Shown here one piece after another: positions 42,499-61,758 of a stretch of 64,000 nucleotides of DNA. The position numbers and the translations under genes were made by a program. Numbering within the stretch: the stretch's first letter is position 1; the number at the start of each line of letters is the position of its first letter. Under the pieces are notes generated by a model. That model ran no database searches. It was not told the origin of the DNA and saw only the letters and a program-made list of their open reading frames with translations. The DNA comes from Haladaptatus caseinilyticus (lineage in GTDB: Archaea; Halobacteriota; Halobacteria; Halobacteriales; Haladaptataceae): positions 372,001-436,000 of the forward strand of contig NZ_CP111041.1 of NCBI RefSeq assembly GCF_026248685.1, in the 5' to 3' direction.

Positions 42499-43251
42499 TC
42501 AATGGACGGTTCGCTCGTCGGCTGTATCGATGTCCTCGATCGGATCATGATTTCCACGAACAACGTCGGGACCGTTCTCGTTTGGCGCAGCCCATTCACA
42601 GGCGTTTCGAAGCACCTGTCGGATTTCCTCCTGATAGTAGACCGGATACGTTTCATGTCCCGGTCGGAAGTAGAAGATGCGCCCCTCACCGCGGGAATAA
42701 CAGCAGCCAGAACGGAACACTTCACCACCCTCGAACCAAGAAGTGAAAATCAACGAGTCCGGTTCGGGAATGTCGAAATGCTCCCCGTACATCTCCGCGT
42801 CGGGGACTTCGATGTACTCGTCGACGCCATCGACGATGGGATGAACCGGATTCGTCACCCACAGTCGCTCCGTTTCCGCAGTTTCGCGCCACTTTAGCGA
42901 ACAACTCGTTCCCATCAGGGTACGGAATATCTTTGAAAAGTGACCAGAGTGAAGCACGATGAGTCCCATTCCACCGAGGACCGCTTCTTTGACGCGTTCG
43001 ACGACCGCGTCGTCTACGTCATCGTGTGCGGCATGGCCCCACCAGGTCAGCACGTCCGTCTCGTCGAGTACATCATCGGTGAGACCATGCTCCGGCTCGT
43101 GGAGCGTCGCTGTCTCGACATCGAACCCACCTTCTCGAAGCGCGTTTGCGAGGACATCATGGATGCCGTTCGGATAGACCTCGGCGACCGTTTCACTCTC
43201 TTGCTCATGAATGTACTCGTTCCAGACGGTAACACGGATATTTTTCGACAT
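42499..43251 (-). CDS. thuA: ThuA domain protein (trehalose utilisation family)
   Basis: 250 residues of the glutamine amidotransferase-like ThuA fold. Seen: the start [29 protein letters not shown] (65-78), [19 protein letters not shown] (97-115), the [20 protein letters not shown] region, and late [12 protein letters not shown]. In Sinorhizobium ThuA acts with a Gfo/Idh/MocA-type ThuB in conversion of disaccharides to 3-keto forms. Both kinds of gene are present here, which supports a role in 3-keto-sugar metabolism, though ThuA chemistry is not settled. Confidence 0.9.
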
Positions 43252-43412: not shown

Positions 43413-43643
43413 TTAGAGTGGAACGTTACGGCAATAGAGTACCATATATCCCGCCGCCAGGGAGATCGGGACCAATGCAACGAAATTCAAGACGATGATG
43501 ACGAACGTTGCACTCCTCCGCGGGACGACGACAAACGAGACGAGGTTCAGTACGAGCACGAGGGAACAGACCATGAACAGGATGTGGATCGCTCCAATAT
43601 ACGTACAGAGGTGGTCACGGAACCCGCCGTCGGTATTCGACAT
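43413..43643 (-). CDS. Small two-helix membrane protein
   Basis: 76 residues with two hydrophobic helices (about 17-38 and 46-67) and a short Arg-rich turn between. It starts with MSNTDGGFRDHLCTYIGAI; ATG 43643 gives a compact protein. It sits upstream of thuA on the same strand and divergent to the second epimerase. No family recognised. Confidence 0.55.
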   Translation of the reverse strand: MSNTDGGFRDHLCTYIGAIHILFMVCSLVLVLNLVSFVVVPRRSATFVIIVLNFVALVPISLAAGYMVLYCRNVPL

Positions 43644-43755
43644 ACCTGATTTGAGATTGGGCCACACCGAAAATCCTTCGCTCGGAATCGGCCGATCTAC
43701 AGCAGTCACAGCGCGGTGGGGAACGACTAAATGCGTCCGATTAGTTGTTTCGATT

Positions 43756-44496
43756 ATGCAGAGTGCAATACAGTTCTATACCCTGCGAGCGCTGGATGAA
43801 CCGCTCGACCGGACGCTCGACCGTGTCGCCGAAACCAGCCTCGACGGCGTAGAGTTCGGTGTGGGGGAGGCCACGTCCCCGGCTGACATTGCAGACGAGC
43901 TTGCCGACCGCGATCTTCAGCTCGCGAACCTGATGGCGGGGACTGATGACCTCGAGAACCCCCAATCAGGGCTTCTCGAGGTCTGTGATGCACTCGACTG
44001 TGATACAGTGGTACTCGGTTATCTCGATGCGTCCTACTTCGAGTCAGTCGAACGGGTCGAGGAAACCTCTACCATGCTCTCCGAGTTCGCCCGGACATTG
44101 GACGAGTACGGATTGAACTTCCACTATCACAACCACGACCACGAATTCGGCGAAATCGGAGGGAGGACGGCGTTCGACATACTCCTCGAGTCCGTCGACG
44201 AACGGGTCGGGTTCGAACTCGATCTCGGGTGGATCGGAACCGGTGGCGACGACCCCTACGCCCGTCTCAACTCGCTTGGTGACCGTGTGTCGTCCGTTCA
44301 TGTGAAGGACATGCATTTCGAGACTGGGAAGTTCGTGAGTCTCGGGGAGGGCGACTTAAACCTCGACAGGGCGATTCGAACCGCACAGGAGCAGAACGTC
44401 GAGTGGGTGATCTACGAAAATGACGAACCCGACGACCCCGTAACCGAGCTTGAACACGGCGCTGATCGCCTCGCCGACGAGGTCAAGAACACATAG
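43756..44496 (+). CDS. Sugar phosphate isomerase/epimerase family protein (TIM barrel), copy 2
   Basis: 246 residues. Paralogue of the barrel at 41502-42260: both start with AIQ(L/F)YTL and share FELDLGWI, a K-D after strand seven (VHVKDMHF) and WVIYENDEPDDPV near the end. Metal-ligand histidines and glutamate sit in NFHYHNHDHEFGEIG. The ATG at 43756 follows a short promoter; an upstream in-frame ATG at 43495 was rejected because that extension is not acidic. Likely acts on a keto-sugar or sugar phosphate with the oxidoreductase and ThuA. Confidence 0.9.
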   Translation: MQSAIQFYTLRALDEPLDRTLDRVAETSLDGVEFGVGEATSPADIADELADRDLQLANLMAGTDDLENPQSGLLEVCDALDCDTVVLGYLDASYFESVERVEETSTMLSEFARTLDEYGLNFHYHNHDHEFGEIGGRTAFDILLESVDERVGFELDLGWIGTGGDDPYARLNSLGDRVSSVHVKDMHFETGKFVSLGEGDLNLDRAIRTAQEQNVEWVIYENDEPDDPVTELEHGADRLADEVKNT

Positions 44497-46310: not shown

Positions 46311-47435
46311 TTAATCCGAGGCCGGTTCCGGTGTGAGTGCCCCTGACTCGACCATCGCCACGAGTGGGTTGTCATCGAAACTGAGCGGGAATTCGATTCG
46401 GCCACGGCGACGTGCTGACTCCCACGCGCCGAAGATGAGTTTCGTTGCCCGGAGGGCGTTCTCGCCGGAGAGGTCCGATGATTCGTCGGATGACAGGCTT
46501 TCGACGACGTCCGCGACTGCCCGTCGAAGGAACACCTGATCCTTTTCGAGACTGGTTACATCTTTCGCCCCGTGAACGTCTTCATCGGTATCGATGGTTT
46601 CCCATCCCGTCGAACCCGTTCGTCGAACGCGTAGAACCGGCCCTGGTTCGCCGCCACCGAAGCCGACTCCGATTTCGATAGTGCCGTCACTACCGATCAG
46701 GCGGTTGTGGCAGTCGACGAGTTGTGCCCCCGAGCCAGTACCAGTCACTGCGAGACCGTGAACACCGCTCTCGTACTCCCACTGTACCAATGCTTGGTTT
46801 TCGTTGTGTGCTCCGAAGAAGATGTTTTCCTCGCTGTAATCGATCTGTGCGAGGACCCATTTCGGATCGGATTCGTCTACGTAGAAGTTACTCAGGTCGA
46901 ACGAGTGGGAACCGTAGTCGAAGAGTGTGCTGGCGGAGAACTCGACACGCTGAAGTTCTCCGATGGCACCGTCGTTGAGCAACGCCTTCGCCTTACGGAA
47001 CGGTCCGCCGAAGCGGCGCTGGTGGTTGAAGGTGAGCTGGACGTTCCCTTCGGATGCTTCGGTAACCATTCGTCGGCAGTCACCCCATGTATCAGCCATC
47101 GGCTTCTCACAATGGATGGCATCGGGAATGCCAGTCTGAATACAACCGACGACGATATCAGCATGAATGGCCGGTGGAACACAGACACTAACGATATCCG
47201 GCTCCGTTTCTTCGAGCATCGTCTCGTACGATTCGTACACGTTCGAATCAGAGATGGCAAAGCTGTCGGCGAACGCATCACCGTTTTCACGAACGATATC
47301 GGCGCACGCGACGAGTTTGCAGTCGTTTCGGGAGTCGTAGGCCATTGCGTGTCGGTACGCCATCGCGAACCCGGACGCGTCCGGACTCTCGGGGGCGGGA
47401 CCGGTTCCGACGAAGGCGATACGGTATGTTGTCAT
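46311..47435 (-). CDS. Gfo/Idh/MocA family oxidoreductase
   Basis: 374 residues. N-terminal Rossmann domain with IAFVGTGPAP (6-15), VSVCVPPAIHADIV (82-95) and the catalytic CEKPMADTW (109-117), followed by the C-terminal alpha/beta dimer domain. The family oxidises or reduces sugars at one hydroxyl with NAD(P), and several members make 3-keto-glycosides. It lies just downstream of the ABC importer genes on the same strand with a 157-base gap and its own likely promoter (GGTTTTAGTGG), so probably acts on the imported sugar. Confidence 0.92.
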   Translation of the reverse strand: MTTYRIAFVGTGPAPESPDASGFAMAYRHAMAYDSRNDCKLVACADIVRENGDAFADSFAISDSNVYESYETMLEETEPDIVSVCVPPAIHADIVVGCIQTGIPDAIHCEKPMADTWGDCRRMVTEASEGNVQLTFNHQRRFGGPFRKAKALLNDGAIGELQRVEFSASTLFDYGSHSFDLSNFYVDESDPKWVLAQIDYSEENIFFGAHNENQALVQWEYESGVHGLAVTGTGSGAQLVDCHNRLIGSDGTIEIGVGFGGGEPGPVLRVRRTGSTGWETIDTDEDVHGAKDVTSLEKDQVFLRRAVADVVESLSSDESSDLSGENALRATKLIFGAWESARRRGRIEFPLSFDDNPLVAMVESGALTPEPASD

Positions 47436-47592: not shown

Positions 47593-48744
47593 TCAGTCGC
47601 TTTCGGAATCAGCCGTGTTCGTTGCTGACGTGTCGTCGAGTTCTGAGGCAGGACTGAGTCCGTCGTCCAGTTCCTCACTCTGCCAATATTCGCTTATACT
47701 GTCGGTGCGAAAGCAAGCAGCTCGATGTTCGTTGCTGGTGTGTTCCATCGGTGGCGACTCCCGTTTACAGAGCTCGCGAGCCTCCGGACAGCGCGTATGG
47801 AACCGACAGCCGCTCGGCGGATTCGACGGATCGGGGACGTCGAGCGATCGAAGCGGCGGCTGCTCGACGTTCTTCGAGAGGAGGTCCGGTGTGGCCCACT
47901 TCAGGACTTTCGTGTATGGATGTTGGGGGTCATCGATGATCTGCTCGACCGGTCCGATCTCGACGAGTTCGCCGAGATACATGATACCGATACGCCCGTC
48001 AGCTTTGCTCGCAATGTACTTCGCGTTCGAGAGGTTGTGGGAGATGAACAGGTACGAGGTGTTGAACAGATCCTGTAGTTCGAGCATGAGATCCATCATC
48101 TCGACGCGCAGCGACACGTCGAGCGCACTGATGGATTCGTCCGCGAGGATGAGATCCGGATTCATGAGGAGTGCCCTGATCAGCGCGACTCGCTGCTGCT
48201 CCCCGCCCGAGAGCTGGTGTGGATACCGATTCGCGTAGTCTTCCGACGGCGTCATTCCCACGCGGTCGAGCATGGCGAAGATGCGTGCCTGCCGGTCTTC
48301 CTTCGAAAGGTTCGGCTGCCAACGTTTCAAGGGATCCTCGAGTGCAGATTCGACGGTATAATTGGAATTCATCGACGAACCAGGATCCTGATGGATTATT
48401 TGGAGTGACCGACGAATCTCGCCCCACGGGATTTGACTCTCGTCGTTCGATAGTCGCTTTACGGGGTTGAGAGATTCCGAGCGTTTTTTCGCCTCCCAAA
48501 CATCCTGGCCGCGATACGTCACGGCGCCTCCAGTCGGTCGCTGGAGTGCCACCGCTGTCTTTCCGAGCGTGGTCTTCCCGCAGCCGGACTCACCGACGAG
48601 AACGACAACATCGTTCTCCGGAATCTCGAGACTGACACCATCGACGGCACGTACCGTCTCCGATCCACCGAGACCCATCAGCGTGTTATTCTCGAAATGG
48701 ACGTGAGCATCCTCGATGGAAAGGAGGGGTTCGTCGGTGCTCAT
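47593..48744 (-). CDS. ABC transporter ATP-binding protein, OppF/DppF type
   Basis: 383 residues. Walker A GESGCGKTT (51-59), signature LSGGEQQRVALIRALL and Walker B LILADESISALD. The last is unusual: most such proteins have DEPxSALD; here Pro is Ser, while the catalytic Glu is kept. The C-terminal oligopeptide-type extension (HPYTKVL then CRFHTRCPEARELC and a late Cys) is complete. It overlaps the OppD-type gene by 4 bases and has a near-perfect ribosome site. Energises import by the permease pair upstream. Confidence 0.92.
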   Translation of the reverse strand: MSTDEPLLSIEDAHVHFENNTLMGLGGSETVRAVDGVSLEIPENDVVVLVGESGCGKTTLGKTAVALQRPTGGAVTYRGQDVWEAKKRSESLNPVKRLSNDESQIPWGEIRRSLQIIHQDPGSSMNSNYTVESALEDPLKRWQPNLSKEDRQARIFAMLDRVGMTPSEDYANRYPHQLSGGEQQRVALIRALLMNPDLILADESISALDVSLRVEMMDLMLELQDLFNTSYLFISHNLSNAKYIASKADGRIGIMYLGELVEIGPVEQIIDDPQHPYTKVLKWATPDLLSKNVEQPPLRSLDVPDPSNPPSGCRFHTRCPEARELCKRESPPMEHTSNEHRAACFRTDSISEYWQSEELDDGLSPASELDDTSATNTADSESD

Positions 48745-49856
48745 ACTCCACCTCCCATGTCCGATCCACGGGTTCCGGCAATATCAGTATTCGCCGTCTC
48801 CCCATCGTCGGGAAGGTAATTAAGCTGAAGTCGCTCCCTAGCTTCATCGGGGTAGAAGCAGGCTGCACCCTGGTCGTTCCCGAGGCCAAACATTTCCGGG
48901 TTTGCGCGTCTGCACTGTTCGTCGGCGAGCGGACAGCGTGGATGATACGAACAGCCATCCGGGATGTCGACGGGATCGGGGGCGGAGCCTGGAATCGCCT
49001 CCATCTCCTCTTCTACCGTGGCAAGGTTGGGAACGGAGTTCAGGAGTGACCGGGTGTACGGGTGAGCCGGACGCCGGAGAATGTCCTTCGTCTTGCCGAG
49101 TTCGATGAACTCGAACGCATACATTACCCCGAGACGGTCGGCGATGTCCGAGACCAACGAGAGGTCATGAGTGATGAACACCATCGTCAATCCGTACTTC
49201 TCCTTCAACCGGTTGAGGAGGCTGATGATAGAACGCTGCATCAGTAGGTCGAGCGCAGCCGTGGGCTCGTCCATCACCAGTACGTTGGGCTTGAGGATGA
49301 GCGAGAGGGCGATGAGTGCTCGTTGTTTCATTCCGCCGCTCAGTTCGTGTGGGTACGAGTCGAGCACGATATCGGCATCGAGGTGAAGATCGGTCAGGAT
49401 TTCCCGTGCGCGCTCCATTCCCGCACCGATGTCGTAGTCGTGTTCGTTGAGCGTCTCCCAGAAATGTGACCGAACGGTCATCGTCGGGTTAAACGCGCTC
49501 TGAGCACCCTGTACCATGAACGAGACTTCTTCCCAGCGCACTTCCTTCAGCTCGGAGGGAGCGAGCGAGTGGAGGTCGACCGGTTCTCCCTCCTCCGGGT
49601 GATAGATGATCTCGCCCGAGAACTCTCCCGGATCGACAACGGCGTTCAACAACGAATCCGCGAACATGGACTTGCCGGAACCGGACTCGCCCACGACACC
49701 CAACACCTCGTCGCGCATGATCTCGAGATTCACGTCGTTGAGGACACGCGACTCGCCGCGTTCCATGTCGAACGTGACCGAGGCATTGCGGACTTCAAGC
49801 ACGACATCGCCGTCGACATCGGTTGCTGGATTCCGCTTCGGTGTCTCGATGGACAT
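48741..49856 (-). CDS. ABC transporter ATP-binding protein, OppD/DppD type
   Basis: 371 residues from ATG 49856 (a GTG at 49859 is also possible). Walker A GESGSGKSM, signature LSGGMKQRALIALSLI, Walker B VLVMDEPTAALD are all intact. The C-terminal extension has HPYTRSLLNSVPNL and the four-Cys module (CSYHPRCPLADEQC, then a late Cys). A GGAGGTG ribosome site at 49864-49870 serves it. Pairs with the OppF-type subunit to form the heterodimeric ATPase of the importer. Confidence 0.92.
   Translation of the reverse strand: MSIETPKRNPATDVDGDVVLEVRNASVTFDMERGESRVLNDVNLEIMRDEVLGVVGESGSGKSMFADSLLNAVVDPGEFSGEIIYHPEEGEPVDLHSLAPSELKEVRWEEVSFMVQGAQSAFNPTMTVRSHFWETLNEHDYDIGAGMERAREILTDLHLDADIVLDSYPHELSGGMKQRALIALSLILKPNVLVMDEPTAALDLLMQRSIISLLNRLKEKYGLTMVFITHDLSLVSDIADRLGVMYAFEFIELGKTKDILRRPAHPYTRSLLNSVPNLATVEEEMEAIPGSAPDPVDIPDGCSYHPRCPLADEQCRRANPEMFGLGNDQGAACFYPDEARERLQLNYLPDDGETANTDIAGTRGSDMGGGV
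48749..48755 (-). promoter_or_regulatory. Ribosome-binding site of the OppF-type gene
   Basis: GGAGGTG on the minus strand, four bases before the ATG at 48744 and inside the end of the upstream gene, marking internal translation start in a polycistronic mRNA. Confidence 0.6.
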
Positions 49857-49968
49857 CACTGGACACCTCCTGTCGTCGGGTTCGGTCGATTCTGATCTTC
49901 GGTCTGTGTGGGTATCGGGTAATACATTGTGTTCGTGTAGTGAGAGTTAGTCGTCGAGGCCGTCACAG

Positions 49969-51966
49969 TCACTTTTGCTTTGGACGACCCTTGATTCCAC
50001 CACGTTTCGTTAACCACTCGGGGTTCCCCATTCCGAGTTCGGGTTCCCCGTTTGGAGCGAAGATGAAGTCGCCAGTGTCACCCCACATACTGTACACGTC
50101 GCTAAAGATTTCGATGTGAAGGGCCTGGAAGTTGTGGTACCATGCCGCCTTCTTGGCATATTTCGACACTTCCTCTTCCGTCTGTGCGAGTTCCATGCCA
50201 CGGTTCCACTCGAACGGGCGGAAGCGTTGACCGTTACCGGAGATTTCCTTAGCGCCAACCTTGGCGGGGAATTTCGGCGTCGGATTAAACGGATGGTTGT
50301 ACACGGGACTCGTATCGCCCTCGATCTTCGGTCGAGTGACTTTGTTCGAACAGCCTCCAGGCGTGTTCGGATCGGAGACGAGGTCTTCGTACGTGCCGAA
50401 TCCGTTGTATCCTGATGACCGACTGAGGTCGTAGAATCGGGTTGGATGGGGTTCGTTCGTTCCAATAGGATACTGATTGATATCGAAGTCGTAGCTCTCG
50501 TATGCGACCTTCCCCCAGGAACCGCTCTCCGGCGAGATGAAATCGTTCTTGATGCCGAAAGCGTTGAGCATCTCCGAGTGGGTTTTCGCGGACATGGGCC
50601 ATGGACCCCAATCCGGGGCGTAATAACTGATACCCGTCGTTTTCTTCCCATTGGAATGGGTCCAAACGTCACCGTTCTTGGTGTAGCCGGCGTTTTTCAT
50701 CGCCTGTTTCGCCTTTTTCGGTTTGGCGCTCGTGCCGTAGTCGATGAGTTTCCCGAGGAATTCCTCGCCGAGGTACTTCTTCTCCATCGCGGGAGTCATT
50801 CCTGAAGCGATCGTTCCAGGGGTCTCCACGGGCTTGCCGTATCCCTGTTTGAGGACCTTCGCTATCTTCTCGAAATCGGTTATGTACGCGATCGCACGGC
50901 GAACACCTCGTCGCGCGAGATGTTCGTTACGCCAGTTCATACAGGCCTTCGGTCCACCAAGGGTTCGGTACTGAGACAGCGTCTTGATACCTTTCGGAGC
51001 TTTGACTTTCCCGCGCCAACTCGAGACGTTTCGACCCCAGTCGAGATTGTCCTGAGAGAACGACTGCTTCTTTTTTTGCGAATCGGACATCGCGATCATG
51101 CGGAGCGTTTCCAGATTCGTCTGCTTCGCGTACGGGTGATCCGTGACCGGTTTACTGATGATCTCCGTCGTACTCCATTCCGTCGGCTTCCACATCCCGT
51201 TTCCGAGCCCCTCATCGACGTACGTTTGGAGATCGACTTTGAGATCGATCAGCTCCTTCTTGACTGCTTGGATCTCTTCGTCGCTTTTCGCTTTCTCGAA
51301 CTTGTCGACGTACTTGCCGTAGAACCCGGTTTTGTACTCACCGATCGTGAACTCGTGTTGAATCGCGACGATGGTTGGGTTGAATGGCCGCGGTAACGTC
51401 TTTTTCACCGTGAATTCGTCCACCTTCTCGATGGACTCGTCGGACGCCTCCGGGCCGTCGCCGTAGAAGTACTCGGTGAGTTTCCAGCGCGTGATGTGGT
51501 CGTCAGCGTTGACCGGCTCGCCGTCCCACCACGTAAAGTCCTCTCGGTAATTGAACGTCACTTCACACCCATCGACTTTCGGGAGTTCTTTCAACAAGTA
51601 TGGTTGAAATCCATCCGACGTGAACGAGTAGTTCAGTGCCTTCTCCCTCCACGCGATCCAAGCCGGACCAACCTTGGTCGGGGATGGGCTCAGCGGGTTC
51701 ATCTCCATCTTCTTTGGCTGGTAGCTGAGCCACTGTACTTTGTCGATGCGAGGGTCACGAGCCTTTGAATCGACGACGTTCTTTCCACTTTCCGTGCGTA
51801 CGTCCGTCCCGATCGTCGGACCGGCGTTGTTGTCGGGTCCGGTATCACCGCCTCCGGAACAGCCAGCCAATCCGGCTGTTGCCGCACCGGTAGTCATCGC
51901 CAGCAATTTCCGCCGCGAGACGGTCGATACCGATATCTCGTCAGATGGTGGACTCTCCTTTGGCAT
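49969..51966 (-). CDS. ABC transporter substrate-binding protein, family 5, Tat lipoprotein
   Basis: 665 residues. Tat signal with RR at 18-19 and the lipobox LAGC at 33-36, so the mature protein is exported folded and lipid-anchored at Cys36. The rest is a cluster-C (SBP_bac_5) binding protein with the usual FNYREDFTWWDGEPVNADDH segment. In Pyrococcus and Thermotoga proteins of this family bind cello- and other beta-gluco-oligosaccharides as well as peptides, which suits the glucanase and GH3 genes here. It has its own TATA-like box. Confidence 0.9.
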   Translation of the reverse strand: MPKESPPSDEISVSTVSRRKLLAMTTGAATAGLAGCSGGGDTGPDNNAGPTIGTDVRTESGKNVVDSKARDPRIDKVQWLSYQPKKMEMNPLSPSPTKVGPAWIAWREKALNYSFTSDGFQPYLLKELPKVDGCEVTFNYREDFTWWDGEPVNADDHITRWKLTEYFYGDGPEASDESIEKVDEFTVKKTLPRPFNPTIVAIQHEFTIGEYKTGFYGKYVDKFEKAKSDEEIQAVKKELIDLKVDLQTYVDEGLGNGMWKPTEWSTTEIISKPVTDHPYAKQTNLETLRMIAMSDSQKKKQSFSQDNLDWGRNVSSWRGKVKAPKGIKTLSQYRTLGGPKACMNWRNEHLARRGVRRAIAYITDFEKIAKVLKQGYGKPVETPGTIASGMTPAMEKKYLGEEFLGKLIDYGTSAKPKKAKQAMKNAGYTKNGDVWTHSNGKKTTGISYYAPDWGPWPMSAKTHSEMLNAFGIKNDFISPESGSWGKVAYESYDFDINQYPIGTNEPHPTRFYDLSRSSGYNGFGTYEDLVSDPNTPGGCSNKVTRPKIEGDTSPVYNHPFNPTPKFPAKVGAKEISGNGQRFRPFEWNRGMELAQTEEEVSKYAKKAAWYHNFQALHIEIFSDVYSMWGDTGDFIFAPNGEPELGMGNPEWLTKRGGIKGRPKQK

Positions 51967-51993: not shown

Positions 51994-52004
51994 GTTTAAA
52001 ATAG
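51994..52004 (-). promoter_or_regulatory. TATA-like element for the binding-protein gene
   Basis: Minus strand TATTTTAAACA, 28-38 bases before the ATG at 51966. It allows the binding protein to be made in excess over the permease. Confidence 0.45.
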
Positions 52005-52227
52005 TTATGGTTCTGGGGTGGAGAAAGGTCGTCGTCGATCACGAGTAGAGGCATGAAGCGGAGTGGAACGGCGACTGGTCCAGGGGTGTATCGATGATTG
52101 GCCGCCAAAAGATCACAGTGAGATCCTGCCGTGATAACCCGTAGAACAATCAGTGCCGAGGAGCGGTGAATACCGTAGCACCTAGGTCACTTCGTCGAAA
52201 TCATGTCAGAGATAGTCACAATTTCGG

Positions 52228-53316
52228 TTACACGTCGTTCAGTTCGGCTCCCTCGTCGTCACCACCGACGCGTTTTGCGTGCTTCGCACGGAGTCGAACG
52301 TTGAAGACGCGATCCATTCCCTGTGCGAATAGGACGAACCCGAGCGATATCAGTGCGATCGTGAACATCGGGATGAGAATGAAGTGAATGTTCTCGGGGC
52401 TTCGAAGGTTGCTTTCTTGGTACGCCGTGTTGAGCAGCACTCCCCAGTTGAGCGACGTCATGGGAAGAATACCGAGGAAGTACAGCGCTACGGATTCGAA
52501 GATGATGTTGCGTGCACTCGTCGCCGTGTTGATCGAGATGTACGGCATCAGCTGTGAGATGAGGTCTTTTCGGATGATGTGCCACTTCGAGAGACCCATC
52601 GCGCGAGAGGCTTCGACGTATTCCTCTTCACGAATGCTGAGCACCTGGGACCGAATGGTTCGAGCAAGCCCTGGCCAGTTATCGATACCGAGGATAAGTC
52701 CAACTATCCACGGGCTCTTCGGCGGAAAGACCGACGCGATGACGAGGACGAGTGCGAGTCCCGGGACAGTTAGCACTACGTCCGTGAACGACATCAGTAC
52801 GCTGTCTACTTTTCCACCCTTGTATCCCGAGACGGTCCCGATAAGGGTGGCAACCACGACGGAGAACAGCGCGCCAGCGGTGATCATCTTCAACATCGCC
52901 GGCGTGGAGTGGACGATTTGGCTCACCATGTCCTTCCCGACAACGCCGGTGCCGAGCGGATGGGTCATGTCGACGAACGGTTCGAGGAAGATAGGGCCTT
53001 GAAGGGTCCGAGGTTCCGGAACCACGTACGGCCCCACAGTCCCCATGAGGAAGAAGAAAAGGAGGATGATTCCACCAATTCGGACTCGCCAGTCGGCCCA
53101 CGCAACCGACATCGGTGCGTAGACATAGGCGTCGAGCAGGCGGGAGAGCCGTTGTTTCCGTGTGTACGACGGACGGTCCTCCGCGGTGGTCGTGAACAAC
53201 TCGTGTTCGAGTTGGCCCCCGTCGGTGGCGACATCGGCTGGAGGGATGGATCCGGTGTCGGATTGGGTCTTCCCGAGTGACTCGCTTGAACGTGCGTCTT
53301 CCTCAGTAGGTTTCAC
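52228..53316 (-). CDS. ABC transporter permease, DppC/OppC type
   Basis: 362 residues with six membrane segments after a long acidic N-terminal tail (1-75). Contains the permease EAA-like loop EYVEASRAMGLSKWHIIRKD and the following QLMPYISINTATSARNIIF. Start GTG 53316 is chosen because GGAGGTGA (53322-53329) lies five bases upstream; a start at 53331 would place that site inside the gene. It overlaps the DppB-type gene by 14 bases. Confidence 0.9.
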   Translation of the reverse strand: MKPTEEDARSSESLGKTQSDTGSIPPADVATDGGQLEHELFTTTAEDRPSYTRKQRLSRLLDAYVYAPMSVAWADWRVRIGGIILLFFFLMGTVGPYVVPEPRTLQGPIFLEPFVDMTHPLGTGVVGKDMVSQIVHSTPAMLKMITAGALFSVVVATLIGTVSGYKGGKVDSVLMSFTDVVLTVPGLALVLVIASVFPPKSPWIVGLILGIDNWPGLARTIRSQVLSIREEEYVEASRAMGLSKWHIIRKDLISQLMPYISINTATSARNIIFESVALYFLGILPMTSLNWGVLLNTAYQESNLRSPENIHFILIPMFTIALISLGFVLFAQGMDRVFNVRLRAKHAKRVGGDDEGAELNDV

Positions 53317-54331
53317 GGTCGTCACCTCCACGAACCCGGGGGTCGATGATGCCGTAGGTGAAGTCCGCGATGAAGATGCCGATCACAGTGATCAGGGTAA
53401 AGAAGATGAAGGCACCCATCAACAGTGGGTAATCACGGTTCTGCAACGCGCCGAACGTCGCGAATCCGACCGCAGGGTACTGGAAGATAGACTCCAAGAT
53501 GATTCCGCTTCCGAAGATGCCCGCAATACCCATCATCAGCCCCGTGTAGATCGGAAGGATAGCGTTTCGACCCACGTATCTGATGGCAATACGTCCGCGA
53601 TTGATTCCACGCAGACGGGCGACGCGGAGATATCCCTTCCCCATCTCGCGGATACAATTTCCACGGAATGCGAGTGCACCTCCGAAACCAGCGATGAATC
53701 CCGAGAGAATGGGAAGTGCGGCGTGATGAACGACACTCGCCATGAACGGATAGTTGAATCCCGGTGTCGTCGCCGGGTCGTACCGTCCACCGGTCGGAAA
53801 GATGGGATGGATGTATGCGAACAAGATGAGCGTGAGAATGGCGACGATATAGTACGGGACCGTCTGGTTGAGTATCGTGAGGATCGTCAACCCGGAGTCG
53901 AAACGACTTCCCTCTTTGTATGCCATCCCTGCACCGAGCAGAAGGCTAACCGTCGTCCCGAGCACGAGACCGTAAACGCTGATAAAGATGGACCACGGCA
54001 TCTTTTCGAACAGGATATCGAACACCGGTTCCCCCCGCCAGACCGACTGGCCGAAATCCTGGTGCAGGATGATGCCCTTCATGTAGTTGAAATATGCCAC
54101 GTGCATCGGTTGATTCGGATTGACGTTGGTGTACACCTTCACGAGTTGGTCGATACGCGCCTGATCGACCTGACTGGCGCCGCCGCCACCCTGAACTGCC
54201 TGGTCGACGAGCCGTGTCCGAAGGATCGTTTCCATACTTCCCGGCATCGACCGGAAGAGAACGAATGCGAATGATGTTGCGATGAACAACACCATGATCG
54301 CCATTCCGACACGTCTAACGTAATAGTTCAT
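53303..54331 (-). CDS. ABC transporter permease, DppB/OppB type
   Basis: 342 residues, six membrane segments; the first (VGMAIMVLFIATSFAFVLF) leads, and a periplasmic-side loop of about 90 residues follows as in DppB. EAA-like loop: YLRVARLRGINRGRIAIRYV. It forms the channel with the DppC-type subunit. First gene of the transporter operon, 142 bases after the glucanase-like gene end, same strand. Confidence 0.92.
   Translation of the reverse strand: MNYYVRRVGMAIMVLFIATSFAFVLFRSMPGSMETILRTRLVDQAVQGGGGASQVDQARIDQLVKVYTNVNPNQPMHVAYFNYMKGIILHQDFGQSVWRGEPVFDILFEKMPWSIFISVYGLVLGTTVSLLLGAGMAYKEGSRFDSGLTILTILNQTVPYYIVAILTLILFAYIHPIFPTGGRYDPATTPGFNYPFMASVVHHAALPILSGFIAGFGGALAFRGNCIREMGKGYLRVARLRGINRGRIAIRYVGRNAILPIYTGLMMGIAGIFGSGIILESIFQYPAVGFATFGALQNRDYPLLMGAFIFFTLITVIGIFIADFTYGIIDPRVRGGDDRETY
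53322..53329 (-). promoter_or_regulatory. Perfect ribosome-binding site fixing the DppC-type start
   Basis: GGAGGTGA, complementary to eight bases of the archaeal 16S rRNA 3' end, five bases before GTG 53316. Lies within the last codons of the DppB-type gene. Confidence 0.65.
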
Positions 54332-54473: not shown

Positions 54474-55883
54474 TTAGATACTGAACTCCTCGCGTTCGAG
54501 GAGATGCTCCGGTCGATTCCCCATCGTCGTCTCGTGGAAATAGTCACGGATGACCCCGTCCTCGAGATGGTTCGCGATAGCCCCGATGGACATCCCTTGG
54601 TCGAGAGCGTAGAATTTCTCCGTTACCTCGCCCGTCTCGGCATTGATCGAGTCGTAAAAGCCGTACTTGCCGTCGATTCCCATCTTTCGTAATTGCGTTA
54701 CGTTTTCGATCACGGCATCCGGCGCGTAGTCGATCGCGAGGAACGTGGCGTGAGGCGTGACGATTGGGCCGGGCGTATAGTTGTCCTTCCATACTCCCTG
54801 TGCGGGAACGCCAAACGCGCCGTACCCATCAGGTGTTCCACACGGTGAGAGTCCCCAAACGGGCCACCCTTGATCGGCAGCGAACTCGATCTGAACCTGG
54901 GTCCAGTTCGAGTTGTTCTTGCCGAATGCGTCAGTTCCGAGTTCCTGTTCCTTCATGAACAGCGACGGCATCAGTGCCTCGAATTGTGCACCACCCCACG
55001 ATGGGACGTACGACGTTCCGTTGTAGTCATAATGACCTTCGAACACGTCAACGCCGTCGTAGGTCTGCCACTCCCCTTCGGCGGTTTGTTGGGTCCAAGT
55101 GTCCTCGGGAGTGTACGTCCGATTCGGTTGCCACCAATGAGTTTTGGGTATGTCGCCTTTTCCGATCGCACAGTAACTGGCGACGCGCGGTTCGCTATTG
55201 ATCGTTCCGTACTCCCAATCGGCAAGGCCACTTTGGTAGTCATAACTCCCGATGAGTCGACCCGTCTCCTCGTCGTGGAACGGGGAGTAATTCTGTGCAG
55301 TGACGAGCGCGCGCGCACGACGGCCCAGTTCCTCATCTTCGTATCGTTGGCTGACGACACCGAGTGCGGCGGTCAAGTGGCCGTTATCCACGGTCGAGAT
55401 GAGCTTCGATCCAGAATGCGTCTCCACCCATGGACGCCCATTCCGAATGTCATACCAGCGGAGAAACAGTCCATTCCATGTCTCGACGGATTCCAACGTG
55501 TCGACGACGGTCCGCAACCGATCTCGTGTTCGTCGTTCGGACAGGAACCCGAGTTCCTCCGCACCGACGGTACTGATAATATACATCGCGATGTTCGATG
55601 GGGAGGTACGGTTCGAACGTTCGATCGACGCGCCACTCACGTCGACGACGTCGTCCGGAAGTCCGAGATTGGATGTGAACCGCTGGAAGAACCGATAATG
55701 TCTCCGGGCGATCCCACGGAGTCTATTCACGCGGCCATCTCCTCGGTCGTCCCACTGGTCGCGCCCGTCACTGTCCTCGGTAGCAACAGCGGTTCCGACA
55801 CCGATCGACGATGCGATCCCGACAGCACCGACCGTGCGAAGGATGTCTCTACGTGTCTCGCTGGTGAATCTTTGCTCTGTCAT
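54474..55883 (-). CDS. Tat-exported glycoamylase-like / GH144-type glucan hydrolase
   Basis: 469 residues. Tat signal (RR at 11-12, no lipobox, Ala-rich end near 35) so secreted. The rest matches the alpha/alpha-barrel family PF10091, known from GH144 endo-beta-1,2-glucanases and the matching region of cyclic beta-1,2-glucan synthases: TSPSNIAMYIISTVGAEELG (93-112), LISTVDNGHLTAALGVV (161-177), WGGAQFEALMPSLF (296-309), GYGAFGVP (353-360), VTPHATFLAIDYAP (375-388), GKYGFYDSI (405-413), DQGMSIGAIANHL (428-440). Exact specificity is inferred. Heads the minus-strand operon with the importer. Confidence 0.85.
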   Translation of the reverse strand: MTEQRFTSETRRDILRTVGAVGIASSIGVGTAVATEDSDGRDQWDDRGDGRVNRLRGIARRHYRFFQRFTSNLGLPDDVVDVSGASIERSNRTSPSNIAMYIISTVGAEELGFLSERRTRDRLRTVVDTLESVETWNGLFLRWYDIRNGRPWVETHSGSKLISTVDNGHLTAALGVVSQRYEDEELGRRARALVTAQNYSPFHDEETGRLIGSYDYQSGLADWEYGTINSEPRVASYCAIGKGDIPKTHWWQPNRTYTPEDTWTQQTAEGEWQTYDGVDVFEGHYDYNGTSYVPSWGGAQFEALMPSLFMKEQELGTDAFGKNNSNWTQVQIEFAADQGWPVWGLSPCGTPDGYGAFGVPAQGVWKDNYTPGPIVTPHATFLAIDYAPDAVIENVTQLRKMGIDGKYGFYDSINAETGEVTEKFYALDQGMSIGAIANHLEDGVIRDYFHETTMGNRPEHLLEREEFSI

Positions 55884-56006
55884 GAGTTAGCGTGCCGCTT
55901 CTGAGTAGCAGTTAGTTCGTTTTAAATTTTAGGGATAGTTGTGCTAATCAGATACGACTCGGCGGGGAGGAGAACATTGATACCCATCGGTCTTGCCATT
56001 GGAGGT

Positions 56007-57554
56007 ATGCGGATACTGTACATCGACTGTGACTCGCTGCGACCCGACCATCTCGGCTGTTATGGCTACGATCGAAACACGTCTCCGAACATCGATCGCA
56101 TCGCTGACGGCGGTCGTCGCTTCACGAACTACTACGCCTCGGACGTTCCCTGCCTCCCCTCGCGGACTGCCCTGTTCACCGGACGCTTGGGTGTACATAC
56201 GGGTGTCGTAAATCACGGTGGTGCTGCGGCGGATATTCGACCACACGGAGCCAGTCGGGACGAAGGAAATACGGGATCGTACCGTACGTGGATGTCGGCA
56301 CTGCGTGATGAAGGCCACCATACGGCGTTCATCAGTCCGTTCCCCCAACGCCACGCCGCATGGCACGTACTCGATGGGTTCGAAGAGTGGCATGACACGA
56401 AAGGTGGCGGCAACGAACGCGCCGAGGTAGTCTACTCCTATGCCGAGGAGTGGCTGGAGAGTCAAGCCGAGAAGGACGACTGGTATCTCCACGTCAACTT
56501 CTGGGATCCGCATACAAACTACGACACGCCCGAAGAGTATGGCAACCCCTTCGAATCCGAACCGGCTCCCGAGTGGCTCACACAGGAACGGATAGACCAG
56601 CAGCGTGAGAGCTACGGTCCACACGGTGCTCACGACTTACACCACGAATATATGACGGGAGAACGACTACCGGACCTCCCGCGAACACCCGAAGAGATCC
56701 GCGACAGAGAAACGTTCAAACAGTGGATCGACGGCTACGATACTGGTATCCGATACATGGACGATCACATCGGCCGACTCCTCGACGTACTCGAAGAGAA
56801 GGAAGTACTCGAGGACACCCTCATCATCGTCACCGCAGACCACGGCGAGAATCAGGGAGAACTCAACGTGTATGGCGACCACCAACTCGCGGACGAGTGG
56901 ACCTGCCGGATCCCCCTGATCGTCTCCGGTCCCGGCGTCGAATCCGGAATCGACGACGATCTCCACTACAACGTCGACCTCCCGCCGACTATCACCGAGT
57001 TCATCGACGGTGACATCCCCGAGGGGTGGGATGGGCAGTCGTTCGCCGACTCGCTCGAACGTGGCGAGAGCGAGGGTGACCGTGAATTTCTGGTTCTCAG
57101 TCAGGGAACGTGGACCTGCCAGCGCGCCGTCCGATGGGAAGACTGGCTACTCATCCAGACGTATCACGACGGCTGGCGAGAGTTTCCCCCACTCGCACTG
57201 TTCAACCTCGATTCGGACCCACACGAGACGACGAACGTAGCTGAAGAGCGACCGGGGGTCGTGGACCACGGGCTCAGTCTCCTCCAGCGTTGGCACAGCG
57301 CCCGGATGGTAGAAAATGCGACCGGTGCTGCCGGTGGGATTGCCGAAGCTTCAGACGCACTCGTCGATCCCCTGCTCGAGGTCGTTCAGGAAGGCAAACC
57401 GTTTTACCAGCGTGGAAACCGTGAGTCATTCGTGGCGCGACTTCGGGAGACAGGACGCGAACACCATGCGAACGAACTATTGAATAAATCTGGTGTCGTC
57501 GAACACGATAGTTCATTGATTGGGGACCCGAAGGAGTACAGCCACCGACAGTAA
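56007..57554 (+). CDS. Sulfatase (Cys-type, formylglycine-dependent family)
   Basis: 515 residues of the alkaline phosphatase/arylsulfatase fold. CLPSRTALFTGR (49-60) contains the Cys converted to formylglycine in active sulfatases. Ca2+-site residues are in LYIDCDSLRPDHL (4-16) and VTADHGENQGE; WDPHTNY gives a conserved His. No signal peptide, so apparently cytoplasmic, which means any sulfate would be removed after uptake. Start 56007 gives the family N-terminus; 55941 is in frame but adds a non-homologous leader. Divergent from the glucanase-like gene, 123 bases apart, so likely co-regulated. Confidence 0.92.
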   Translation: MRILYIDCDSLRPDHLGCYGYDRNTSPNIDRIADGGRRFTNYYASDVPCLPSRTALFTGRLGVHTGVVNHGGAAADIRPHGASRDEGNTGSYRTWMSALRDEGHHTAFISPFPQRHAAWHVLDGFEEWHDTKGGGNERAEVVYSYAEEWLESQAEKDDWYLHVNFWDPHTNYDTPEEYGNPFESEPAPEWLTQERIDQQRESYGPHGAHDLHHEYMTGERLPDLPRTPEEIRDRETFKQWIDGYDTGIRYMDDHIGRLLDVLEEKEVLEDTLIIVTADHGENQGELNVYGDHQLADEWTCRIPLIVSGPGVESGIDDDLHYNVDLPPTITEFIDGDIPEGWDGQSFADSLERGESEGDREFLVLSQGTWTCQRAVRWEDWLLIQTYHDGWREFPPLALFNLDSDPHETTNVAEERPGVVDHGLSLLQRWHSARMVENATGAAGGIAEASDALVDPLLEVVQEGKPFYQRGNRESFVARLRETGREHHANELLNKSGVVEHDSSLIGDPKEYSHRQ

Positions 57555-58372
57555 CGTCCATTCTAATCCGCCGACTCCGTATTCGATGGTTTCCGATGAA
57601 GAGCAAAAAATCGGGATCCGCCACGATAGGACAGTTCACGTACGTACCAGTGGATTTTCCGAATGATGGATGGTCAAAAAACCATATTCACGCAGTATTC
57701 AGATGTATACAAGCAAATGGGAATATTTTCTACCGGAATTTGCGAAATTACTAACAAAGGCATCCGAAATGAGTGTTTCGTTTAAGTATGGTTATATCCA
57801 CCATGATTGAAAAGGGCGTAGCCAGGCACTAGTCATAGGTGAATGCATGCGTTGTGTTCGGTGCTGGAAGTAGCTGACCGGAAGAGTTGCGAGCCACCGG
57901 CCGTTTCTCGGTGACGAACGAGTATTGAGAGGGTGGTTCATGGCGAGGGGAATTACAAAGTTAGATTTGTAATGCGAACTGCCGGTCAGTGCTGTTGCTT
58001 GCAGATGAAAGTCGTCGGAAGTTCGACTGCAAATCTCAGTATCGATCCGTCTACGAGGGATCTATTCGGCGGTCTAATGGAGGTTGAGAAGAAATAATGA
58101 GGAGATACCGTAGGTGAAGCGGATATTTTCATCATCATTGAATGTTGCTGTCGTCGCTGGCGAACGATTATTTCACGGGAACGTCCGTTACGAACCCTTC
58201 TCATCGACAGAGGGTCCGAATGAGTTCACGGATGTGGGTGAGGGTGGTTCTCCACTGCCGAAAGCCACGGACAAACCCGTGCGATCACTCTTCTTGAGGG
58301 ACGGATTTCGGAAGACAGAAACGACTAAGTAGTAGAGTTCCTCAGCTGTTTTTGATTGGAGATACTTTGAAA
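57555..58372. other. Gene-free stretch of 0.8 kb between sulfatase and GH3 genes
   Basis: No gene recognised; the plus-strand frame 58114-58332 shows no family features. AT-rich around 57680-57800. Contains the 8-6-8 inverted repeat at 57952-57973. Confidence 0.45.
57952..57973. promoter_or_regulatory. Perfect 8-6-8 inverted repeat
   Basis: ATTACAAA-GTTAGA-TTTGTAAT, about 400 bases above the GH3 gene and 400 after the sulfatase stop. Its symmetry and AT-content suit a regulator site, but the distance to GH3 is large. Confidence 0.45.
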
Positions 58373-60565
58373 ATGAGTTTATTACAGATGTTCGCCTCTA
58401 CCGAGCAACGCTCGTTCATCGAGGACGAGGTAGATTCACTGTTGGAGGAAATGACATTGGAAGAGAAGGTGGGGCAGCTGAACCAACTCAACGGAACCGA
58501 CCAAACCGGACCGGCAGTCGAGGATATGGATCTCGAAGCAGAGATCCGTGCGGGCCACGTCGGGTCTGTATTGAACGTCGATGGGTTCGAAACTCGGAAG
58601 CGATACCAAGAGTTGGCGGTCGAGGAGTCACGGCTCGGGATCCCGCTTCTATTCGGCTTTGACGTCATCCATGGGTATCGAACGATTTTCCCGATCCCGC
58701 TCGGGGAAACGGCAAGCTGGGACCCAGACGTAGCCGAGGCAGCAGCGCGCGTTGCTGCGAGCGAAACTGCCGCAGCAGGTATCCATTGGACGTTCGGCCC
58801 ACCGGTAGACGTGACACGTGATGCACGGTGGGGACGAGCAATGGAGACCAGCGGTGAAGACCCCTATCTCGCGAGCGAATTTGCAACCGCTCGGGTGTGC
58901 GGGTTCCAGGGTGATGATTTACGTGCGAAAGACACGGTTCTCTCCTGTGCGAAGCATTATGCGGCATATGGGGACGTCAAAGCGGGCAGGGAGTACAACA
59001 CGGTTGACATCAGCGAGTCGACGCTCCGAGATTTTCATCTTCCACCCTTCAAGGCAGCGGTCGACGCAGGCGTCGGGACACTGATGAACGCCTTCACCAC
59101 GTACGACGGGGTTCCTGCAGGCGCAAGCACGCACCTCCTCAGGGATATCCTCAAGGACGAATGGGGGTTCGAGGGGTTCGTCGTTTCCGACTGGAACTCC
59201 TTCCGAGAGTTCATCTACCACGGTGTCGCCGGCGATGAGCACGACGCAGCGAAGCTTGCTATCGAAGCCGGTTCAGACATGGATATGGTCGGGCATATCT
59301 TCGCCACGGCGCTCGCGGATCTCGTACGTGCCGGTGATGTCAATGAAACACTCGTCGACGAAGCAGTTCGGCGAGTCCTTCGAACCAAGTTCCTTCTCGG
59401 GCTTTTCGACGATCCATATCGTTACTTCGACGAGGAACGCCGGTCGGCCGTTATCCAGGCGGCGGCGCACCACGAGACCGCTCGTGACGCCGCACGCAAG
59501 TCGATCGTTCTGTTGAAAAACGAGAAAGATATATTACCGCTCTCGAATCGTGGCGAAATCGCAGTAGTGGGTGACCTCGCCGACGACGGTAACGATGCAA
59601 TCGGTGACTGGCGCGCACGTGGCCGACCCCAAGACGCGATTACCGTTCGAGACGGGATCGAATCGGCAGCCGATTCCAGTACGACCGTCAGGTTTGCACA
59701 GGGATACGAGCGACCGGGAACTGTCACCGACGAATTACGAGACGAAGCGATCGAGACTGTAACGGACGCTGATGTGGCCATCGTCGCCGTTGGCGAGACG
59801 TGGGAGCTTTCCGGCGAGGCGTCCGCCCGTTCCGACATCACTCTTCCCGGGGATCAGCGTGACCTCCTCGAGGAACTCGTTGCGACAGAGACTCCCGTCG
59901 TCGCGATCCTCACGAACGGCCGTCCACTTGCGATACCGTGGATGGACGAAAATATCCCCGCGATTCTCGAAACGTGGTTTTTAGGAACGCAAGCAGGGAA
60001 CGCGATCGCGGATGTGTTGTTCGGCGAATACAACCCATCCGGAAACCTCCCGATAAGTTTTCCCCGGGCGGTAGGTCAGGTCCCGATTCAATACAATCAG
60101 TTGCCAACGGGGCGACCACTGGAGCGGGCAGAACCGGGGTGGGGGACTTCCTACCTCGACACCCCCAACGATCCGTTGTACGCCTTCGGCCACGGGCTCA
60201 GCTACACGCAGTTCGAGTACTCCGACTTGGAGTTGAATCCCAATCAGATCAGTCCAGGGGAGACTGTAACAGCATCCGTGATAGTCGAAAATACGGGCAC
60301 GCGGCCCGGAGAGGAAGTAATACAACTGTACACGCACGACGTCGTCGCGAACCGATCACGACCGGAAAAAGAGTTGAGTGCGTTCGAGAAAGTTCGTCTC
60401 GAGCCCGGAGAACGACGGAAGGTGACGCTCTTCATCGAGCCAGACTCACTTGCGTTTTGGACGACGGACGAAGAAATCGCCGTCGAGCCGGGCGAGTTCG
60501 AGGTACTGGTAGGACGTTCTTCAGATGATATTAGGGAGACGGGTGTCTTCGAAGTCCAAGAATGA
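58373..60565 (+). CDS. GH3 family beta-glucosidase
   Basis: 730 residues. GH3 N-domain (20-310): RWGRAMETSGEDPYL (153-167), CAKHYAAYG (193-200 region), MNAFTTYDGVPAG (238-250), and nucleophile VVSDWNS with Asp273. C-domain (350-600) with NEKDILPLS and GETWELSGEASARSDITLPG bearing the likely acid/base glutamate; a fibronectin-III-like domain ends the protein (640-725). No signal peptide, so acts inside on imported oligosaccharides. ATG 58373 chosen over TTG 58352. GH3 with GH144 genes in bacteria degrade sophoro-oligosaccharides, supporting but not proving the same here. Confidence 0.94.
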   Translation: MSLLQMFASTEQRSFIEDEVDSLLEEMTLEEKVGQLNQLNGTDQTGPAVEDMDLEAEIRAGHVGSVLNVDGFETRKRYQELAVEESRLGIPLLFGFDVIHGYRTIFPIPLGETASWDPDVAEAAARVAASETAAAGIHWTFGPPVDVTRDARWGRAMETSGEDPYLASEFATARVCGFQGDDLRAKDTVLSCAKHYAAYGDVKAGREYNTVDISESTLRDFHLPPFKAAVDAGVGTLMNAFTTYDGVPAGASTHLLRDILKDEWGFEGFVVSDWNSFREFIYHGVAGDEHDAAKLAIEAGSDMDMVGHIFATALADLVRAGDVNETLVDEAVRRVLRTKFLLGLFDDPYRYFDEERRSAVIQAAAHHETARDAARKSIVLLKNEKDILPLSNRGEIAVVGDLADDGNDAIGDWRARGRPQDAITVRDGIESAADSSTTVRFAQGYERPGTVTDELRDEAIETVTDADVAIVAVGETWELSGEASARSDITLPGDQRDLLEELVATETPVVAILTNGRPLAIPWMDENIPAILETWFLGTQAGNAIADVLFGEYNPSGNLPISFPRAVGQVPIQYNQLPTGRPLERAEPGWGTSYLDTPNDPLYAFGHGLSYTQFEYSDLELNPNQISPGETVTASVIVENTGTRPGEEVIQLYTHDVVANRSRPEKELSAFEKVRLEPGERRKVTLFIEPDSLAFWTTDEEIAVEPGEFEVLVGRSSDDIRETGVFEVQE

Positions 60566-61691: not shown

Positions 61692-61709
61692 TTTGTTGGT
61701 TAGCTACTC
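61692..61709. repeat. Copy 2 of the 18-bp near-palindromic repeat
   Basis: TTTGTTGGTTAGCTACTC, two mismatches to copy 1 and likewise about 50-67 bases above the start (61759) of the divergent YfcC-family gene. Placement of one copy before each gene suggests a shared operator. Confidence 0.45.
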
Positions 61710-61758
61710 ACACGATGGTGGATGTTGGCAGAATATCATAAACAAAAAAATAGTAACA

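What the first reader, a model, noticed from the sequence alone, without database searches (positions are those of the whole stretch)
54474..60565. Haloarchaeal glucan-utilisation locus with a GH144-like secreted hydrolase, sulfatase, GH3 and oligosaccharide-type importer
A Tat-exported PF10091-type protein (54474-55883) lies with an Opp/Dpp importer (47593-54331), a cytoplasmic sulfatase (56007-57554) and a cytoplasmic GH3 (58373-60565). In bacteria the GH144 plus GH3 plus ABC combination degrades beta-1,2-glucan. A similar pathway with family 5 binding protein and a sulfatase is not one I know from archaea. Substrate specificity is inference.
Basis: partly seen in the sequence, partly recalled or inferred. 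Interest (0 to 1): 0.75.

Follow-up and report, generated by a model that had tools for sequence, protein, structure and literature searches.

The report
Haloarchaeal beta-1,2-glucan utilisation locus with sulfatase
A salt-loving archaeon carries a 20-kb gene cluster, shared with a few other haloarchaea and partly matched in Gram-positive bacteria, that looks built to cut, import, desulfate and digest a beta-1,2-linked glucose polymer; I found no such pathway described in archaea, and the sulfatases hint at a sulfated form of the polymer that has not been described.

Summary
[quoted passage not shown] AlphaFold model Z 52 to the GH189 domain of cyclic-glucan synthase and 41-42 to beta-1,2-glucanases EeSGL1 and CpSGL. 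It is not GH144 proper. Its nearest named relatives outside haloarchaea are Bacillota proteins (about 50% identity), and an actinobacterial homologue has the catalytic spacing published for GH193 SkSGL. General acid (E231) and base (D166) are invariant; the GH189 nucleophile Glu is Pro, so an inverting hydrolase is expected. The GH3 belongs to the BglX family and keeps the aromatic-Arg-aromatic +1 subsite of sophorose-hydrolysing Lin1840. The locus is larger than reported: IclR, TIM-barrel, ThuA and Gfo/Idh genes extend it to about 40.4-60.6 kb. Its parts recur in Halorussus, Halomontanus (plasmid) and an unnamed haloarchaeon. The sulfatase forms a 100/100-supported clade of exclusively cluster-linked members; two Bacillota place a homologue beside an SGL, one with a formylglycine-generating enzyme adjacent. 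Best reading: a haloarchaeal locus for beta-1,2-glucan, probably sulfated, with an Opp-type importer. Substrate and sulfation are inferred; no maturase was found in the genome. New variant of a known kind.

The parts
54474..55883 (-). Tat-exported SGL-superfamily (PF10091) hydrolase, predicted inverting endo-beta-1,2-glucanase; acid E231, base D166
53303..54331 (-). Opp/Dpp-type permease (OppB-like)
   Evidence: PF00528; orthologue 86% in Halorussus cluster
52228..53331 (-). Opp/Dpp-type permease (OppC-like)
   Evidence: PF00528; 76% in Halorussus cluster
49969..51966 (-). Tat lipoprotein, family 5 solute-binding protein
   Evidence: PF00496; 75% orthologue only in the Halorussus cluster among 392 genomes, next 36% or less; fold search not discriminating
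48741..49859 (-). Opp/Dpp-type ATPase (OppD-like)
   Evidence: PF00005 + PF08352; 79%
47593..48744 (-). Opp/Dpp-type ATPase (OppF-like)
   Evidence: PF00005 + PF08352; 80%
46311..47435 (-). Gfo/Idh/MocA oxidoreductase
   Evidence: PF01408; orthologues 59-69% in Halorussus, G062 and Halomontanus clusters
56007..57554 (+). cytoplasmic sulfatase with CxPSR signature
   Evidence: PF00884; motif; cluster-specific clade, support 100/100
58373..60565 (+). cytoplasmic GH3 beta-glucosidase, BglX family; nucleophile D273, acid/base E482, +1 subsite W274/R581/W590
43495..44496 (+). xylose-isomerase-like TIM barrel (AP_endonuc_2); the true start is probably downstream of the listed one
   Evidence: PF01261; homologues in the related clusters
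42499..43251 (-). ThuA-like protein
   Evidence: PF06283; 73% orthologue in G062 cluster
41502..42260 (-). xylose-isomerase-like TIM barrel (AP_endonuc_2)
   Evidence: PF01261; orthologues 57-60% in four other clusters
40427..41200 (-). IclR-family regulator, candidate regulator of the locus
   Evidence: PF01614; orthologues 72/63/61% in Halorussus, Halomontanus and G062 clusters

Best explanation
A catabolic locus for a beta-1,2-linked glucan, probably sulfated. Proposed route: the Tat-exported SGL-superfamily enzyme cleaves the polymer outside the cell by an inverting mechanism (E231 acid, D166 base) to beta-1,2-gluco-oligosaccharides; a Tat lipoprotein of family 5 and an Opp-type ABC transporter import them; a cytoplasmic sulfatase removes sulfate esters; the cytoplasmic BglX-type GH3 splits the oligosaccharides to glucose; the Gfo/Idh, TIM-barrel and ThuA proteins may process modified or leftover units by C3 oxidation; the IclR protein regulates. 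Shown here: family, fold, conserved catalytic residues, export motif, gene linkage, recurrence and co-inheritance. Inferred: the substrate, its sulfation, order of steps, and regulation.
For: Fold and catalytic residues of the glucanase; the hydrolases of this superfamily with a known substrate are specific for beta-1,2-glucan (PMC12102758). GH189 nucleophile position is Pro in 32 and Ser in 1 of 33 homologues, so a cyclising transglycosylase is unlikely. GH3 above the NCBIfam BglX cut-off (776 vs 666), 658 bits to 5xxl (which I recognise as BT_3567) and 536 to Lin1840, with Lin1840's sophorose-binding W271/R572/Y583 matched by W274/R581/W590. GH3 homologue within 10 kb of the glucanase in 27 of 78 Bacillota loci. 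Recurrent clusters in Halorussus, G062, G320 and Halomontanus. Sulfatase clades A and B, each 100/100, contain only cluster-linked members; two Bacillota put a 51-54% identical sulfatase beside or near an SGL with GH35 and a family 1 binding protein (plus a permease in one), and one has FGE next to the SGL. GH35 also occurs in a characterised beta-1,2-glucan cluster (PMC8861115).
Against: [quoted passage not shown] The genome has no FGE and no convincing anSME, so the sulfatase may be immature or work otherwise. GH3 is not adjacent in every cluster, and G152 and G036 have the glucanase without sulfatase or GH3 homologues at the thresholds used. The binding protein does not cluster with a sugar-specific group. 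The sulfatase's role on this substrate rests on linkage only.
Confidence: 0.62

Rival explanations
1. The locus degrades plain, unsulfated beta-1,2-glucan or sophorosides; the sulfatase-family protein has drifted to another ester substrate or is inactive for want of a maturase.
For: No FGE or anSME in the own genome, no FGE in G181, G282, G320; the bacterial beta-1,2-glucan clusters described in the papers read have no sulfatase.
Against: The CxPSR signature is intact in the cluster-linked sulfatases read over that region, and none of the other PF00884 proteins of the genome that were read shows it; FGE lies beside the SGL and sulfatase in Perspicuibacillus; G062 has FGE on the same contig.
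Confidence: 0.3
2. The target is a different sulfated heteropolysaccharide (algal or haloarchaeal exopolysaccharide) in which beta-1,2-glucosyl stretches are one element.
For: Related clusters add GH2-malectin (G062) and GH172, with GH78 nearby (Halomontanus); two sulfatase types occur; several Gfo/Idh and TIM genes suggest modified sugars.
Against: The window locus itself has no further GH; characterised SGL enzymes need beta-1,2-linked glucose units bound across subsites -3 to +2 (PMC12102758).
Confidence: 0.25
3. The secreted enzyme is a cyclising transglycosylase like the GH189 domain of cyclic glucan synthase, used in making rather than breaking glucans.
For: Highest sequence and fold similarity among solved structures is to GH189.
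Against: GH189 nucleophile Glu replaced by Pro; stand-alone exported protein beside an importer; no second PF10091 in the genome; tree separates it from cyclic glucan synthases with support 100.
Confidence: 0.04
4. The importer is a peptide or metal transporter that happens to lie beside a glucan hydrolase.
For: Opp/Dpp/Nik family by all searches; top fold matches include NikA and DppA at nearly tied Z.
Against: Opp-type genes sit beside the glucanase in Halorussus, G062, G320, Halocatena and Halomontanus; sugar-binding family 5 proteins TM1223 and the chitin-oligosaccharide binder are among the top fold matches.
Confidence: 0.12

Closest known systems
Streptomyces griseus SGR_2422-2427 and Listeria innocua lin1839-1841 beta-1,2-glucan gene clusters (PMC12369401, PMC4757417)
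   Same: SGL-superfamily hydrolase (SGR_2427, GH193), beta-glucosidase preferring sophorose, ABC importer.
   Different: They use a Lin1841-type sugar-binding protein, GH1 or GH94+GH3 enzymes; no sulfatase is described; the haloarchaeal locus has a family 5/Opp importer, sulfatase(s), IclR, Gfo/Idh and TIM-barrel genes.
Ignavibacterium album IALB_1177-1187 cluster (PMC8861115)
   Same: SGL homologues with GH94, GH35 and an ABC importer.
   Different: GH144 enzymes, GH35 transglycosylase, no sulfatase mentioned; GH35 is absent from the haloarchaeal loci read but present in the two sulfatase-bearing Bacillota clusters.
[quoted passage not shown]
   Same: Same fold (Z 52.1, 1.7 A over 382 residues) and acid Glu.
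   Different: Nucleophile E1442 is Pro here; stand-alone, exported, no glycosyltransferase domain.
Haloarchaeal glycosaminoglycan loci (PMC13260240)
   Same: Haloarchaeal polysaccharide locus with ABC importer and sulfatase.
   Different: Lyase/GH88/GH154 chemistry on uronic-acid polymers, not an SGL/GH3 route.
Levoglucosan lgdA-B1-B2-C genes (PMC7676230)
   Same: Gfo/Idh oxidoreductase with two sugar-phosphate-isomerase-like proteins, as in the accessory part of this locus.
   Different: No SGL, GH3 or sulfatase; the link is by family only and was not tested.

Membership tests
SGL superfamily (GH144/162/189/192/193/194) | (alpha/alpha)6-barrel fold of the SGL type | tested here: met
   Predicted model: Z 33-52 to SGL structures, next folds Z about 23
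SGL superfamily (GH144/162/189/192/193/194) | Conserved general acid Glu (E211 CpSGL, E1356 TiCGSTg) | tested here: met
   E231, aligned to E1356 by HMMER and invariant in 33 homologues
SGL superfamily (GH144/162/189/192/193/194) | Conserved Phe and Tyr (F286 and Y367 of XcSGL) | tested here: inconclusive
   F301 and Y354 are invariant and align with EeSGL1, but were not superposed on XcSGL
GH144 | Closest sequence similarity to CpSGL/XcSGL | tested here: not met
   CpSGL 28 bits versus 135 for GH189 and 88 for GH192
GH189 | Nucleophile Glu equivalent to E1442 | tested here: not met
   Pro at that position, WGLSPCG
GH193 | Groups with SkSGL in a family tree | tested here: inconclusive
   SkSGL sequence not at hand; the Nonomuraea homologue has the published D160-E246 spacing of 86 and joins the same clade, apart from cyclic glucan synthases
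GH193 | Hydrolysis of beta-1,2-glucan with inversion | not testable with these tools
   needs an assay
BglX-type GH3, beta-1,2-glucan-associated | NCBIfam BglX model above cut-off | tested here: met
   776.4 bits against a cut-off of 666
BglX-type GH3, beta-1,2-glucan-associated | Subsite +1 aromatic/Arg/aromatic set of Lin1840 | tested here: met
   W274, R581, W590 aligned through JMB19063 Y262, R587, F598
Formylglycine sulfatase (PF00884) | C/S-x-P-S-R signature | tested here: met
   CLPSR
Formylglycine sulfatase (PF00884) | A known maturase (FGE or anSME) in the genome | tested here: not met
   No PF03781 match; TIGR03942 best 20 bits, cut-off 349
Sugar-binding family 5 SBP | Nearest solved relatives bind oligosaccharides | tested here: inconclusive
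   Mannobiose, chitin-oligosaccharide, nickel and peptide binders lie close together at Z 20-22

The most novel reading that the evidence does not exclude
The locus is the haloarchaeal form of a pathway, shared with some Bacillota, for a naturally sulfated beta-1,2-glucan, a polysaccharide not yet described, perhaps carrying sulfate in more than one way (two sulfatase clades) and desulfated in the cytoplasm.
Probability: 0.33. Interest if true: 0.82.

Novelty: new variant of a known kind. Interest (0 to 1): 0.62.

Why it matters
Beta-1,2-glucans are known as bacterial osmoregulatory and symbiosis glucans; the papers read place their degraders in bacteria and fungi. A conserved haloarchaeal locus would extend the pathway to archaea, with a different importer and a sulfatase. 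If the substrate is sulfated, it points to an undescribed polymer in salt habitats and gives a direct way to find it: use the enzymes as probes. The absence of any known maturase beside an intact sulfatase signature is a second testable puzzle.

Tried and rejected
GH144 label: rejected on scores. GH189 transglycosylase: rejected on the missing nucleophile. Binding-protein specificity: phmmer against PDB gave only marginal hits (TM1223 and others, E 0.005-0.01) and the fold comparison put sugar, peptide and nickel binders close together, so no verdict; an absent ligand class there means nothing. [quoted passage not shown] the library is open-access only. Four Bacillota rows (L039, L043, L047, L098) were mis-extracted by my frame-extension script and dropped from the tree.
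Full report
OBSERVATION. The window is 64 kb of a 557-kb contig in a 4.8-Mb haloarchaeal genome. The 469-aa protein (54474-55883, -) matches PF10091 at 81 bits (cut-off 27) and is the only such protein in the genome. Its N-terminus has a twin-arginine motif and no lipobox; the first 48 residues are of very low confidence in the model. The importer is a five-gene Opp/Dpp set whose family 5 binding protein has a Tat-lipobox N-terminus. The sulfatase and the GH3 start at MRILYID and MSLLQMF without a visible signal, so both are probably cytoplasmic. The glucanase and the sulfatase are divergent, 123 bp apart (sequence).

THE HYDROLASE. [quoted passage not shown] GH144 CpSGL has only 28 bits. The AlphaFold model (mean pLDDT 86, most of the catalytic domain over 90) aligns to 8wy1 at Z 52.1 (1.7 A, 382 residues, 29% identity), CpSGL at 42.3, EeSGL1 at 41.3 and fungal GH162 at 33; the next unrelated barrels fall to about 23. 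In TiCGSTg the acid/base is E1356 and the nucleophile E1442 (PMC10834661). Counting through the HMMER alignment, E1356 falls on E231 (NSEPR) and E1442 on P347 (WGLSPCG). The base proposed for GH144 and GH192-194, an acidic residue equivalent to D149 of EeSGL1 (PMC12102758), falls on D166 (STVDNG). D166 and E231 are identical in 33 of 33 homologues and position 347 is Pro in 32 and Ser in 1. An inverting hydrolase, not a transglycosylase, is therefore expected. Hydrolases of this superfamily with a known substrate act specifically on beta-1,2-glucan (PMC12102758).

FAMILY. A scan of named genomes found 535 relatives; the best 80 are two haloarchaea (Halocatena marina, Halorussus salinisoli, 70-73%) and otherwise Bacillota such as Halobacillus and Paenibacillus (41-52%). 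An actinobacterial homologue (Nonomuraea) has D and E 86 residues apart, the spacing published for GH193 SkSGL (D160, E246). In a quick tree the nine haloarchaeal proteins form one group (support 83) inside a clade with the Bacillota and Nonomuraea proteins, divided from cyclic glucan synthases with support 100 (several long branches). GH193-type membership is likely but not proven, because SkSGL itself could not be included. Lateral transfer from Bacillota is plausible, but its direction is inference, since only the nearest 80 relatives were kept.

THE GH3. It exceeds the NCBIfam BglX cut-off (776 vs 666). Among its best solved relatives are 5xxl, 'periplasmic beta-glucosidase', which from my own knowledge is sophorose-hydrolysing BT_3567, and Lin1840 from the Listeria beta-1,2-glucan cluster. 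Lin1840 binds sophorose at +1 through W271, R572 and Y583, with JMB19063 equivalents Y262, R587 and F598 (PMC4757417). Through the 3u48 alignment these map to W274, R581 and W590; nucleophile D273 and acid/base E482 are present. This set also fits laminaribiose, so it supports but does not prove beta-1,2 preference.

THE LOCUS IS CONSERVED AND LARGER. Homologues of the glucanase occur in only 7 of 392 genomes sampled from the order. Around them: Halorussus salinisoli has Gfo/Idh, OppF, OppD, binding protein, OppC, OppB, a TIM gene, glucanase and sulfatase in the same order (65-86% identity for all but the TIM gene), with the GH3 about 20 kb away; G062 has two glucanases, two sulfatases, GH3, Gfo/Idh and TIM genes, IclR and an Opp set; G320 has glucanase, GH3, Opp set and TIM gene; Halocatena marina has glucanase and Opp set. 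A 323-kb plasmid of Halomontanus rarus carries IclR, Gfo/Idh, TIM, sulfatase, TIM, binding protein, four transporter genes, BglX, glucanase, sulfatase and GH172 in one run. Pfam and tblastn show that the window unit likewise starts upstream at an IclR regulator (40427-41200), followed by TIM, ThuA and TIM genes and Gfo/Idh, with orthologues in these clusters (IclR 61-72%, TIM 57-60%, Gfo/Idh 59-69%, ThuA 73%). Presence of the glucanase predicts a close sulfatase (5/7 vs 26/385, Fisher p 4e-5) and a close GH3 (4/7 vs 12/385, p 6e-5); these p-values ignore relatedness and include the own genome, but stay below 0.001 without it.

THE SULFATASE BELONGS TO IT. Close homologues exist in 31 of 392 genomes. 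In the tree the window sulfatase groups only with sulfatases of the Halorussus, G062 and Halomontanus clusters (support 100/100), and a second clade, also well supported (100/98 on the tree), holds a second sulfatase from those same three clusters. The Halorussus clade-A copy lies about 21 kb from the full glucanase and 5 kb from a second, shorter glucanase-like frame. Two Bacillota, Perspicuibacillus and Melghirimyces, have a 51-54% identical sulfatase beside or a few genes from an SGL gene, with GH35 and a family 1 binding protein; in Perspicuibacillus the next gene on the other side of the SGL is a formylglycine-generating enzyme, and in Melghirimyces a permease gene is also present. A GH35 beta-1,2-glucoside transglycosylase is known from an Ignavibacterium SGL cluster (PMC8861115). 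The simplest reading is that the imported oligosaccharides are sulfated. A search of the open literature held here gave no sulfated beta-1,2-glucan, so this step is inference.

WHAT DOES NOT FIT. The genome has neither FGE nor a convincing anSME, although the sulfatase has an intact CLPSR signature that the other PF00884 proteins of the genome, as read, lack. G062 and G152 have FGE; G181, G282, G320 and G036 do not; only 6 of 59 sampled genomes of the order do. Either another maturase exists or the protein is not a classical sulfatase. The binding protein gives no decision: TM1223 (mannobiose, mannohexaose), a chitin-oligosaccharide binder, NikA and others lie together near Z 20-22 on a model of only moderate confidence (pLDDT 71). 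In G152 and G036 the glucanase stands without close sulfatase or GH3 homologues.

ACCESSORY GENES. A Gfo/Idh enzyme with two sugar-phosphate-isomerase-like proteins can act by C3 oxidation, beta-elimination, hydration and reduction, as in the levoglucosan pathway (PMC7676230). Such a role here, perhaps for modified residues, is a hypothesis resting on family membership only.

VERDICT. Observation confirmed and extended; interpretation partly right. A haloarchaeal beta-1,2-glucan utilisation locus of a new variant: GH193-like glucanase, BglX-type GH3, Opp/family 5 importer, cluster-specific sulfatase, IclR. I found no report of beta-1,2-glucan degradation by archaea in the papers searched. Most novel open reading: an undescribed sulfated beta-1,2-glucan.

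Noticed in passing
G000 whole genome; window 56007-57554: The locus sulfatase is the only PF00884 protein seen in the genome with a formylglycine signature, yet neither FGE nor anSME was found; FGE is present in just 6 of 59 sampled genomes of the order.
   Followed up: partly
[quoted passage not shown] the three read parts keep the STVDSG and LLASEAR motifs and one the WGISESG motif, suggesting archaeal cyclic-glucan synthases.
   Followed up: partly
L173 (G405): A 594-aa PF10091 protein in another archaeal genome matches at E 3e-59, much stronger than the haloarchaeal one, and may be a GH144-type enzyme in an archaeon or a contaminant contig.
   Followed up: no
L010 / L012:1984-2880: Halorussus salinisoli has a second, shorter frame matching the glucanase C-terminal part (56% over residues 343-469) about 15 kb from the full gene, perhaps a remnant.
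   Followed up: no
L078:11426-13285: Melghirimyces has a second SGL with C-terminal RTX calcium-binding repeats directly after the first.
   Followed up: no
window 44520-45794: A HEAT-repeat protein gene sits inside the cluster between TIM and Gfo/Idh genes; a 39% homologue lies next to Gfo/Idh in Halorussus too.
   Followed up: no
window 61693-63216: A DcuC/YfcC-family transporter gene follows the GH3; it matches the YfcC model only below cut-off.
   Followed up: no
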